A DNA stretch of 40,919 nt, from contig JAIUOJ010000015.1 of assembly GCA_020161335.1 (NCBI GenBank), positions 1-40,919 of the forward strand, in the 5' to 3' direction. How positions within the stretch are numbered: position 1 is the first letter of the stretch; every line of letters begins with the position of its first letter. The notes below the pieces were generated by a model, which was not told the origin of the DNA, made no database searches, and saw only the letters and a program-made list of their open reading frames with translations. The DNA is from Pseudomonadota bacterium (GTDB lineage Bacteria > Pseudomonadota > Gammaproteobacteria > Xanthomonadales > Xanthomonadaceae). The position numbers and the translations under genes are program-made. Of the stretch, positions 32,530 to 35,566 are shown piece after piece.

Positions 32530-33843
32530 TCACGCGGCGCGGCGCAGCGCGGCGTAGAAGAACCCGTCCATGCCGGCCTCGCCCGGCAGGCGCTGGCGAC
32601 CCGCTCCCGCTTCGCGGCCGAAGGTCTCCGGCAACGCGACGGCGGCGGCATCCGGGGTGCGCGCCAGGAACGCCGCCACCTGCGCCTCGTTCTCGGCCTT
32701 GAGGATCGAGCAGGTGGCATAGAGCAGCACGCCACCGGGGGCCAGCAGCGGCCACAGCGCATCGAGCAGCCTCGCCTGCAGCGCGACCAGCGCGTCGACG
32801 TCGCGCTCGCGCCGGTGCAGCAGCACGTCGGGCTGGCGGCGGATGATGCCGGTCGCCGAGCACGGCGCGTCGAGCAGGATCGCGTCGAAGGGTTCGCGGT
32901 CCCACCAGGCCGCGGTGTCGGTCGCGTCCGCGGCCAGCAGCCGGGCGTCGGCGCCCACGCCCAGTCGCGCGAACGTGGCGCGCACCTTGCGCAGGCGCGC
33001 CTCGTCGATGTCCAGCGCCACCAGGCGCAGCCCGGGGTCGAGCTCCAGCAGGTGCGCGGCCTTGCCGCCGGGCGCGGCGCAGGCGTCCAGCACGCGCGCG
33101 CCGGACGCGGGCGACAGGGCGCCGGCCACGCGCTGCGCGGCGCCGTCCTGCACCGAGACGTCGCCCTCGGCAAAACCGGGCAGCAGCGCGACGGGCAGGC
33201 TGGCGTCGATGCGCAGCGCGTCGTCGAGCCCGCCTTCGATCATCGCCTCGATCCCGGCGGCGTGCAGGCGATCGCGATAGGCGTCGCGCGTGCCACGCTG
33301 GCGATTCACGCGCAGCCAGGTCGGGGCCCGCGCGCTGCTCGCCTCGACGATGCGCTCCAGTTCGCCCGGCCAGTCGGCCACCAGCCGGCCACGCAGCCAC
33401 GACGGCCACAGGTCGCGCCAGTCGGCTTCGGGCAACCCGTCGCGCTGCGCGCGGCGCAGCAGCGCGTTGACCAGGCCGGCCTGGTGGGTGCGGCCGAGCG
33501 CGCGCGCCGCTTCGACCGTGGCGGCAAGCACCGCGTGCGCGGGCATCTCCAGCGGATCGAGCTGGGCGAAGCCGGCCAGCAGCAACGCGCGCAACGGCGC
33601 ATCGCGCCTCGGCAGCGGCCGCGGCATCCACGCCGCCAACGCGGCGTCACCGCGCGCGCGGATGCGCAGGGCCGCGAAGCAGATCGCCTCGACCAGGGCA
33701 CGGTCGCGCGCGTCGGCGAGGCCGGGCAGCGTGGCGGCGAATTCGGCCTTCAGCGAATGGCCGTGGTGCAGCACCGCGTCGAGCACGCGCGCGGCGGCAA
33801 CGCGCGCGGCCACGCCCGGCGGCAGCGGCGGCTCGCGCGTCAT
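32530..33843 (-). CDS. rsmB: 16S rRNA (cytosine-967-C5)-methyltransferase
   Basis: SAM-dependent rRNA methyltransferase, 437 residues. An N-terminal NusB-like RNA-binding domain (about 10-140; [29 protein letters not shown]) precedes the Rossmann methyltransferase. [16 protein letters not shown] is the SAM motif, [15 protein letters not shown] holds the first Cys and LLYATCSIL the catalytic nucleophile Cys. Length agrees with E. coli RsmB (429). The start codon overlaps the fmt stop (ATGA), so rsmB is translationally coupled to fmt, the typical order in this lineage. Confidence 0.96.
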
Positions 33844-34769
33844 GCGCCGGCCTTCAGGTCGCGGCGCGCGTTGAGGTAGTCGGCGGCCGTGATCGCGCGC
33901 GCGCCGGCGCGCTGCAGCGCGCGGATGCGCAGGGCGCCGGTCCCGCAGGCCACGTCCAGCCCATCGCGCGACGCCGCCAGCAGCGTGCCGGGCGCGGCGG
34001 CATGCGCCAGCGACAGGGCGTCGGCCGCATGGATCCGCACGCGTTCGCCGGCAAGCTCGGCCTCGGCCACCGGCCAAGGGAGGAAGGCGCGCACCTTGCG
34101 CGCCAGCACCTCGGCCGGCGCGGCCCAATCGAGCAGCGCTTCGCCTTTTTCCAGCTTGTGCGCGTAGGTGGCGCCGGCGTCGGGCTGCGGCGTCGCCGCA
34201 GGCAGGCGACCGCCGCGCAGCGCGGCAAGCCCCTCGGCCAGCGCCTGCGCACCCAGCTCGGCGAGGCGATCGTGCAGTGCCCCGGACGTTTCCGTCGCGG
34301 CGATCGGCGTACGTCGTTCCAGCAGCACCGGGCCGGTGTCGAGGCCCTGCGCCATGCGCATCAGGCACACGCCGGTCTCGGCATCGCCGGCTTCGATCGC
34401 GCGCTGGATCGGCGCCGCGCCGCGCCAGCGCGGCAGCAGCGAGGCATGCACGTTCCAGCAGCCGTGGCGCGGGATCTCCAGCACCTTCGGCGGCAGCAGC
34501 AGGCCATAGGCCACCACCACCATCAGGTCGGGCCGCAGCGCGCGCAAGGCGGCGCGCGCCTCGACCGTGCGCAAGGTCTCCGGCTGCAGCACCGGCAGGC
34601 CGAGTTCCAGCGCCGCCTGCTTGACCGGCGAGGCGGCCAGGCCGCGGCCGCGCCCGGCGGGGCGGTCGGGCTGGGTATAGACGGCCACCACCTCGCCGTC
34701 GGCCGCGGCCACGCGCAGCGACGGCACGGCGAAGCCGGGCGTGCCGGCGAAGACGATGCGCAGTGCCAT
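33840..34769 (-). CDS. fmt: Methionyl-tRNA formyltransferase
   Basis: Formylates initiator Met-tRNA using 10-formyltetrahydrofolate; 309 residues, family length about 315. The N-terminus [18 protein letters not shown] is typical. The active site segment [17 protein letters not shown] contains the Asn and His, and GLDTGPVL the Asp. The C-terminal OB-like domain starts near residue 205. Normally the gene lies directly behind def; here a 267-bp inverted-repeat element separates them, and the element's end is 11 bp from the fmt ATG, so the fmt ribosome binding region is partly element-derived. Confidence 0.96.
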
Positions 34770-34780
34770 CGCCTGGGCCC

Positions 34781-35047
34781 TAGGGCCTGTTGACGCGATT
34801 GGCATGGGCCACGTTGTCCTGTCCGGCCGCCAGGTGGTCGTGCGCGGCGCAGCGGCAGGCTGGCCGCCTGTCCAGGCCGCGCGCGGCCGGCTGGCGGCGG
34901 GACACGGCCACCCGGAGGGCCGCGCTTGAATGCGCACGGGGCCGCGTCATCACTCGGTCATGGATCGACATCCATTCCCTCCCTCTTCCTTGCCCCGCGC
35001 GCACTCAAGCGCGGCGTGGCCCATGCCAATCGCGTTCACAGGCCCTA
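34781..35047. mobile_element. MITE-like element with 33-bp terminal inverted repeats, TA duplication
   Basis: The ends TAGGGCCTGTTGACGCG (from 34781) and CGCGTTCACAGGCCCTA (to 35047) belong to terminal inverted repeats of 33 bp (34781-34813 and 35015-35047) with 2 mismatches. The outer TA at each end looks like a target duplication. GGGCCTGTT ends with TA targets recall the IS427 group of IS5-family elements (from memory). No transposase is present. Two further inverted repeats lie inside: 34820-34833 with 34891-34904 (13 of 14) and 34920-34935 with 34999-35014 (15 of 16). Transcribed from def to fmt it would fold as a three-way junction. It contributes the last base of the def stop codon. 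Confidence 0.82.
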
Positions 35048-35566
35048 TTCGACGTCGCCCTGCTTGCGCAGCTTGTCGTACTTCTTGATCGCGCGGTCGC
35101 GCTTGAGCGCGGACAGGTGGTCGATGAACAGCTTGCCGTCGAGGTGGTCGACCTCGTGCTGCACGCAGGTGGCCAGCAGGCCGTCGACGCGCAGCTCGAA
35201 CGGCGCACCGTGGCGATCCAGCGCCTCGACCACGATGCCGTCCGCGCGGGTGACGTCGGCGAAGATGCCCGGGATCGACAGGCAGCCTTCCTGGTGCACG
35301 CGCAGGTCGGCCGAACGCTCGCGGATCACCGGGTTCACGAACACCAGCGGCTGCTCGCGCCCCTCGGTGACGTCGATCACCATGAAGCGCTGGTGGGTGT
35401 CGACCTGGGTCGCGGCCAGGCCGATGCCGGGCGCCTCGTACATGGTCTGGAACATGTCGTCGAGCAGGCGCTGGAACGCGGAGTCGTGCAGCTGCGCGGC
35501 GTCCACCGGCCGGGCGACGGTGCGCAACCGGGGATGGGGATACTCGAGGATCGGGAGCAGGGCCAT
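35045..35566 (-). CDS. def: Peptide deformylase
   Basis: Metalloenzyme removing the N-terminal formyl group from nascent proteins, 173 residues. All three motifs are intact: GIGLAATQ (motif 1), EGCLSIPG (motif 2, metal Cys) and QHEVDHLDG (motif 3, HExxH metal site and catalytic Glu). Start ATG 35566 gives the typical [16 protein letters not shown]-terminus. The stop TAG is formed at the junction with the inserted element (35045-35047). The C-terminus [13 protein letters not shown] is normal, so the protein is probably not altered. Confidence 0.96.

What the first reader, a model, noticed from the sequence alone, without database searches (positions are those of the whole stretch)
34781..35047. 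Structured MITE split the def-fmt operon; excision restores a tight junction
A 267-bp element with 33-bp terminal inverted repeats and TA at both ends sits exactly between def and fmt. Deleting the element and one TA on paper leaves the def TAG stop followed by 10 nt and the fmt ATG, the compact arrangement expected for this operon. This strongly supports a real and fairly recent insertion. Inside are two more hairpins side by side, so the transcript would fold into a three-way junction just before the fmt start, which could alter fmt translation, processing or termination.
Basis: seen in the sequence. Interest (0 to 1): 0.7.

Follow-up and report, generated by a model that had tools for sequence, protein, structure and literature searches.

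The report
Folded mobile element in def stop codon
A 267-base "jumping" DNA with no genes of its own landed exactly in the stop codon between two protein-maturation genes; it belongs to an old, many-copy family in Xanthomonas-like bacteria whose elaborate fold seems to be kept for the element's own spread rather than for the host gene.

Summary
Window 34781-35047 is a non-autonomous transposon (MITE) with 33-bp inverted ends between def and fmt. The genome holds six further full copies at 90-95% identity; the family's signature core occurs in 55 of 297 sampled genomes and 25 of 54 genera of its bacterial family, and in Rhodanobacteraceae. Its ends match 15 of 18 outer bases (commonest form 17) of 809-818 bp IS5-family insertion sequences in relatives; the TA duplication and YTAR targets fit IS5. 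Empty sites: exact for two sister copies, compact but diverged for def-fmt.

New here: (1) 21 of 34 copies with both TAs intact occupy a neighbouring gene's TAG/TAA stop, against 10 of 86 background YTAR sites; the element's first G rebuilds TAG, sparing the upstream gene. (2) The interior is a four-way-junction fold with strong covariation (62 of 90 pairs) and a conserved purine-rich loop. (3) Seven young copies decay alike in paired and unpaired positions, while lineages differ by compensated pairs, without net G-U excess outside three fixed wobble pairs. So the fold appears kept in the spreading lineage (or by arm correction), not for fmt. No such transposase was found in this genome; mobilisation by IS5 is inferred.

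The parts
34781..35047 (-). Whole element with one TA at each end (263 bp GGGCC...GGCCC plus TA/TA); family-forward strand is the minus strand, the direction of def-fmt transcription
34781..34782 (.). TA target-site duplication, fmt side
   Evidence: in copies at non-CTAG targets the G after the left TA and the C before the right TA stay, so the duplication is read as TA, not four bases
35046..35047 (.). TA target-site duplication, def side; first two letters of the def stop codon
35015..35047 (-). Left terminal inverted repeat / outer stem P1 (forward strand); 15 of the outer 18 bases equal the IS5-family IS end
34781..34813 (-). Right terminal inverted repeat / outer stem P1; 15 of the outer 18 bases equal the IS5-family IS end
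34921..35013 (-). Hairpin A: long covarying stem around a conserved purine-rich internal loop
34945..34993 (-). Conserved core pattern of hairpin A (GCAAGGAAGA..GA........ATGTCGAT......C.GAG.GATGACG), signature of the family
   Evidence: 0 mismatches here; reversed-pattern control 0
34910..34920 (-). Hinge mini-hairpin CCC-TCC-GGG between hairpins A and B
34815..34909 (-). Hairpin B: covarying stem with conserved inner part
35045..35566 (-). def, peptide deformylase, 173 aa; its TAG stop is formed with the element's TA+G
33840..34769 (-). fmt, methionyl-tRNA formyltransferase, 309 aa

Best explanation
It is a non-autonomous IS5-type transposon (MITE). Shown: it is a repeat family with IS5-like ends, a duplicated TA and a YTAR (mostly CTAG) target, inserted here at the TA of the def stop codon; because the element starts with G after the TA, the TAG stop is rebuilt and def is unharmed. 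Inferred: an IS5-family transposase acting in trans (from an element now lost from this genome, or supplied from outside) cut and joined it; insertions at stop codons survive because they break no gene. Also inferred: the conserved four-way-junction fold helps the element to propagate (for example by bringing the ends together on single-stranded or extruded DNA), or is renewed by arm-to-arm correction in spreading copies; it does not serve def-fmt regulation. The side effect on the host is about 265 extra structured nucleotides between def and fmt, probably loosening translational coupling.
For: Multi-copy in own genome: 42 matches, six other full copies at 90-95%; 55 end-like sites with up to 2 mismatches against 6 for the reversed control. 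Family-wide core: 55 of 297 genomes, 25 of 54 genera, reversed control 0. IS of 809-818 bp with ends TAGGGCCTGTTAACAC; IS5 transposase domains in L091 and L094. Better end of each of 33 copies against the 18-base IS end: 18 matches in 1, 17 in 11, 16 in 8, 15 in 10, 14 in 3. Empty-site tetramers of 34 copies: CTAG 16, TTAG 6, CTAC 4, CTAA 3, ATAG 2, GTAG 2, TTAC 1, like published IS5 targets (PMC5493358, passages). Empty sites: the HK-RR site aligns across the junction in at least 43 of 51 relatives, reading CTAGGGCATGG at the exact place in G027 and G049; folK-panB site with CTAGGG in G017, G025, G019 and G049; def-fmt aligned across in at least 20. Stop codons: 21 of 34 copies against 10 of 86 background YTAR sites (10 of 75 without intragenic ones), Fisher p = 5e-7; reading phase 43/13/10. 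Fold: 95.1% of cells paired, 62 of 90 pairs with double changes, 0 of 500 shuffles as high. Resident copies: substitutions 4.3% paired, 4.0% unpaired.
Against: No IS5-group transposase found in this genome (genome 94.95% complete, 252 contigs) and none at E <= 0.001 in 16 of 25 element-bearing genomes tested, while of 10 IS-rich genomes 9 have no core and the tenth (G027) has no match to the element: IS and MITE largely avoid each other. The window copy matches only 15 of 18 IS end bases at either end. The def-fmt empty site is not letter-identical in the five relatives aligned. The stop-codon effect was not seen in 28 Rhodanobacteraceae loci (6 usable flanks, phase 0/1/2 = 2/3/1). Flank calling uses a codon model trained on this window only, and copies and sites are not fully independent, so p values are rough.
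Confidence: 0.82

Rival explanations
1. Domesticated RNA regulator: the element's transcript acts as a cis element (RNase III site, attenuator or stabiliser) tuning fmt, and this maintains its structure.
For: Very stable fold right before fmt. The element is co-oriented with the gene whose stop it carries somewhat more often (20 against 12; 15 against 7 between co-directional genes; no test was run there, and the difference is small). Raw cell counts show more G-U (275) than A-C (177) in stems, carried by three fixed wobble pairs. The internal loop of hairpin A has few changes in young copies (4 of 175). Known precedents: ERIC and Correia/NEMIS (PMC2229807, passages).
Against: Young copies change equally often in paired and unpaired positions; at cluster level G-U is 97 and A-C 114 once the three wobble pairs are set aside; no full-length element in the 26 other readable def-fmt junctions; no promoter or terminator match.
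Confidence: 0.07
2. The pairing is only a by-product: replication-fork template switching keeps copying one arm onto the other, so arms stay complementary without any function of the fold.
For: Double changes without a G-U intermediate excess (outer stem P1 G-U 41 and A-C 33 at cluster level; hairpin A outer 39 and 31, or 28 and 31 without its two wobble pairs; hairpin B outer 11 and 31); even the terminal repeats vary with compensation in some lineages.
Against: Unpaired stretches, which correction would make palindromic or leave to drift, are among the best kept: hairpin A internal loop 0.84 identity between distant copies against 0.53-0.57 in the long stems; length is held at 264-270 bp in 63 of the 91 copies with paired ends; young copies show mainly one-sided changes (47 of 50 altered pairs).
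Confidence: 0.3
3. Conserved RNA gene or riboswitch native to the def-fmt operon.
For: Strong covariation.
Against: No full-length copy in 26 of 26 readable relatives' junctions; many copies at unrelated loci; no Rfam match at gathering score within the element, and only weak chance-like hits at E up to 1.
Confidence: 0.01
4. REP/REPIN-type repeat moved by a RAYT (tyrosine transposase).
For: Intergenic, palindromic, many copies.
Against: 263 bp rather than the 20-40 bp given for REPs (PMC3733652, abstract start in the listing), long terminal repeats, TA duplication and IS5-like ends. RAYT genes were not searched for.
Confidence: 0.02

Closest known systems
IS5-family insertion sequences (NF033580 transpos_IS5_3; the group name IS427 is recalled)
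   Same: Outer ends (14-18 of 18 bases), TA flanks, YTAR/CTAG target preference
   Different: No transposase and no convincing similarity inside; conserved fold instead. The published IS5 duplication is a tetranucleotide (PMC5493358, passages), here TA
MITEPsy1 of Pseudomonas syringae (PMC3189936, passages read)
   Same: MITE tabled as 'IS5?', CTAG or YTAA target
   Different: 100 nt, 18-nt ends, 4-nt duplication, restricted distribution; no complex fold in the passages read
Correia/NEMIS, ERIC, RUP (review PMC2229807, passages read)
   Same: TA-ended MITEs with highly paired transcripts; RUP is tied to an IS630 by its ends
   Different: Under 200 bp and mostly A+T-rich, typically one end-to-end stem loop; here 263-302 bp, GC-rich, a four-way junction conserved through covariation
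CIR repeats of Caulobacter/Brucella (same review, passages)
   Same: Two-arm structure conserved across taxa
   Different: Two arms joined by a linker rather than by paired ends; carries a GANTC motif

Membership tests
MITE | Short, no transposase gene, terminal inverted repeats | tested here: met
   267 bp, too short for a transposase; 33-nt arms 94% complementary
MITE | Many dispersed copies with target duplication and empty sites | tested here: met
MITE | Ends matching an autonomous transposon | tested here: met
   15 of 18 outer bases in the window copy, 14-18 of 18 over 33 copies
MITE | Actual mobilisation by that transposase | not testable with these tools
   needs a transposition assay; no transposase found in own genome
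IS5-derived element | YTAR/CTAG target | tested here: met
   25 of 34 empty sites are YTAR, 16 CTAG
IS5-derived element | Internal deletion derivative of the IS | tested here: not met
   33 copies against four IS; inside only short matches of 10-22 bases, best E 1.6e-4 (16 bases, in 2 of 33 copies); tested against these four IS only
Rfam RNA family | Covariance-model match at gathering score | tested here: not met
Structured RNA under selection | Excess of G-U over A-C in stems of the transcribed strand | tested here: not met
   123 and 114 at cluster level, 97 and 114 without three wobble pairs; raw cells 275 and 177
REPIN/RAYT | RAYT gene in the genome | not tested
   not searched

The most novel reading that the evidence does not exclude
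The fold, not the ends, is the constant heart of this mobile family: a 263-300 bp single-strand-folding module with a purine-rich internal loop (which can be drawn as tandem G-A pairs) that is selected at each round of spreading, carries IS5-type ends, and settles preferentially in stop codons, so that it spreads through two bacterial families without breaking genes. That would be a class of transposon whose propagation requires a folded nucleic acid.
Probability: 0.3. Interest if true: 0.75.

Novelty: new variant of a known kind. Interest (0 to 1): 0.52.

Why it matters
Covariation is normally read as proof of a functional RNA. This family shows strong covariation without a net G-U signature and without visible upkeep in resident copies, so it is a warning case and a test bed for structure-dependent transposition. 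It also gives a clear example of a transposon whose rare target (CTAG) and end sequence together let it occupy stop codons harmlessly, which helps explain how MITEs build up inside operons.

Tried and rejected
Transposase in own genome: PF01609 none; PF13358 gave one weak sub-cutoff hit, by my reading of the translation an IS3-like fragment; IS5 protein none; NF033580 none. Phages and plasmids: no match. Rfam: no match in the element at gathering score; hits in fetched loci are a SAH riboswitch or weak. Orientation bias of the element: 20 against 12 and 15 against 7, not convincing. Stop-codon test in 28 Rhodanobacteraceae loci: only 6 usable flanks, phase 0/1/2 = 2/3/1, not replicated. Literature: searches listed no paper that describes this family (open-access PMC only; several listings were capped, for example 12 of 91 and 20 of 33; 26 and 77 searched for end and core letters).

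Rows dropped: one search found 134 distinct cores, 91 with paired ends and 43 without; one search used 76 (68 of the 91 with length 262-303, plus 8 taken); one search used the 34 of 76 with TA at both ends and enough flank. In one search, 26 of 30 junction loci were parsed (the own locus and three others failed the fmt pattern); def was found in 51 of 52 genomes but only 30 loci were fetched.

Full report
WHAT IS THERE. The element at 34781-35047 is as described: inverted arms of 33 nt, 94% complementary, TA at both ends, lying between def and fmt. Because def runs on the minus strand, its stop TAG is the duplicated TA plus the first G of the element. Removing the element and one TA leaves TAG, 10 nt, ATG. 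The single strand folds at -197.5 kcal/mol as RNA (z -14.1) and -112.7 as DNA (z -12.4). The junction has four arms: the outer stem, hairpin A, a tiny CCC/GGG hairpin and hairpin B.

A FAMILY. In the own genome BLAST gives 42 matches, including six other full copies at 90, 93, 94, 94, 95 and 95% and one at 85%. In the genus 33 of 52 genomes (own included) have a match at E <= 0.001, many of them short. A 49-nt core pattern with up to 3 mismatches is found in 55 of 297 sampled genomes of the family and 25 of 54 genera; the reversed control pattern is found in none. An exact scan of named genomes returned 69 stretches, from Lysobacter, Luteimonas, Pseudoxanthomonas, Xanthomonas bonasiae, Vulcaniibacterium, Rehaibacterium, Dyella, Rhodanobacter, Frateuria, Rudaea and others, some of them MAGs named only to phylum, class or order. 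NCBI places Luteimonas in Lysobacteraceae and Dyella and Rudaea in Rhodanobacteraceae, both in the order Lysobacterales. No match in 50,697 phage or 72,556 plasmid records.

WHO MIGHT MOVE IT. A search for exact ends showed pairs about 810 bp apart; four are IS of 809-818 bp with both ends, and a fifth of 961 bp carries an insert. Not all have intact reading frames. In L091 and L094, the two examined, the two frames match DUF4096 and DDE_Tnp_1 and the IS5 model NF033580 (one of the four pieces is just under its cut-off). The window copy agrees with the IS end in 15 of 18 outer bases at either end; over 33 copies the better end agrees in 14-18 of 18. Inside, a sensitive BLAST of 33 copies against four IS gives only short matches of 10-22 bases, the best 16 bases at E 1.6e-4 in two copies, so the element is not an obvious deletion derivative of these IS. 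IS with other ends (for example TAGAGCGTGTTATGAAC) also start with TAG. The own genome shows no such transposase. Of 25 element-bearing genomes tested, 16 had no NF033580 match at E <= 0.001; the 10 genomes that I chose for IS or many ends all had one, and nine of these held no core, while the tenth (G027) had no element match. So the link to IS5 rests on ends, TA and target choice; movement itself is inferred, and the IS may have been lost after a burst.

EMPTY SITES. Six sites with the element left out were searched in the genus (the list of matches was truncated, so counts are minima, counted by hand). The HK-RR site (copy L006) aligns across the junction in at least 43 of 51 relatives; of four examined, G027 and G049 read CTAGGGCATGG at the exact place, G025 GTAGGG and G010 differs with a two-base gap. 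The folK-panB site (L007) shows CTAGGG in all four examined, G017, G025, G019 and G049. Gene names folK, panB, HK, RR, mucD and lepA are my reading of the translations and sequences, not a database result. For def-fmt itself, at least 20 relatives align across the junction, and in 26 of 26 parsed relatives the gap is 3-195 nt; in the five aligned, the letters at the junction differ, so the def-fmt empty site is compact but not exact.

TARGET AND STOP CODONS. Among 34 copies with TA at both ends, the reconstructed targets are CTAG 16, TTAG 6, CTAC 4, CTAA 3, ATAG 2, GTAG 2, TTAC 1. CTAG is rare: 4 in the window, one of which is created by this element, against 33 expected from its sub-words. 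Using a codon model trained on the window, 21 of these 34 copies sit in the TAG or TAA of a neighbouring gene, 2 in frame at a Tyr codon, 11 elsewhere, and none was called intragenic; of 86 background YTAR sites in the same loci 10 are stops, 11 intragenic and 65 other; p = 7e-8, or 5e-7 after removing intragenic ones. With TAG alone counted, the figures are 17 of 34 copies against 4 of 33 CTAG sites. In the wider set of 76 copies, genes reading into the element are in the stop phase 43 times and in the other phases 13 and 10. Insertion at TAA turns it into TAG. In 28 Rhodanobacteraceae loci, where the ends are mostly AGAGYCTG-like (the Rudaea copy L336 has TAGGGCCTGTTAAC), the effect is not seen (6 usable flanks).

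THE FOLD. On 33 copies, 95.1% of paired cells are standard pairs, 62 of 90 pairs show changes on both sides and the covariation score is 0.494 against 0.163 in shuffles (0 of 500 reach it); sliding the partner by 1-3 columns drops pairing to 29-39%. These 33 were picked by ends or by similarity to the window copy, not by the core. Three further facts shape its meaning. First, G-U is not in net excess over A-C outside three fixed wobble pairs: cluster-level counts over 76 copies are 41 and 33 in the outer stem, 39 and 31 in hairpin A outer stem (28 and 31 without its two wobble positions), 9 and 7 in its inner part, 18 and 0 in the hinge (15 of them one fixed wobble), 11 and 31 in hairpin B outer stem, 5 and 12 in its inner part; together 123 and 114, or 97 and 114 without the three wobbles. 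Raw cells give 275 and 177, which leans the other way because the wobbles are shared by many copies. A stem selected as RNA would be expected to tolerate G-U more than A-C. Second, unpaired positions are not free: the internal loop of hairpin A is 0.84 identical between distant copies, the ends 0.91, but the long stems only 0.53-0.57. Third, the seven young copies of the own genome (L001-L007) carry substitutions equally in paired (53 of 1246) and unpaired (25 of 621) cells, 47 of 50 altered pairs being changed on one side only, whereas between copies under 70% alike 68% of differing pairs are changed on both sides and kept; between copies over 88% alike 14% are. The internal loop had 4 changes in 175 cells, somewhat fewer, too few to judge. 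So a copy seems to decay where it sits, and the fold is restored or selected in the lineage that goes on spreading.

HOW IT MOST LIKELY WORKS. Shown: insertion, family, ends, target, stop-codon placement, fold. Inferred: an IS5-type transposase in trans joins the ends to a YTAR site; insertions in stop codons survive because TA plus the element's G restores TAG; the fold or its renewal matters during spreading. For def-fmt the result is an untouched def, and a fmt start moved about 265 nt from the def stop behind a very stable stem, with the last 13 nt before the fmt ATG unchanged. Whether fmt expression drops is unknown.

KNOWN OR NEW. As a kind it is a MITE; a MITE with IS5-like ends and CTAG/YTAA targets is known (MITEPsy1, PMC3189936, passages), IS5's YTAR/CTAG target is published (PMC5493358, passages; PMC10379815, passages), and highly paired transcripts are usual for bacterial MITEs (PMC2229807, passages). 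What differs is the conserved four-way fold with a kept internal loop across two families, the evidence that it is upheld in the mobile lineage rather than in place, and the strong preference for stop codons. My searches listed no paper describing this family; they cover open-access PMC only and several listings were capped.

Noticed in passing
L043, L045, L047, L053, L055 (def-fmt junctions of relatives): Other inverted or repeated short motifs (such as GATTGGTGATTCG with CGAATCACCAATC) sit at or near the def stop in several genus mates: the junction looks like a hot spot for unrelated repeats.
   Followed up: no
L093:1512-2472: An IS copy carries an insert of about 144 bp whose ends (GGCTAACAAAAC) look like those of another IS5-group IS (L253, L260).
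   Followed up: partly
L016:1490-1540 and L118:1479-1524: Solo mini-copies of about 51 and 46 bp in which almost only the two ends remain.
   Followed up: no
IS-rich and element-rich genomes: IS5-group IS and the MITE largely exclude each other across genomes; loss of the IS after MITE spread, or another mover, would both fit.
   Followed up: partly
L013:2792-2869: SAH riboswitch (Rfam RF01057, 54.7 bits) near another copy of the element.
   Followed up: no
window:19609-19681 (-): tRNA gene, the only Rfam match in the window at gathering score.
   Followed up: no
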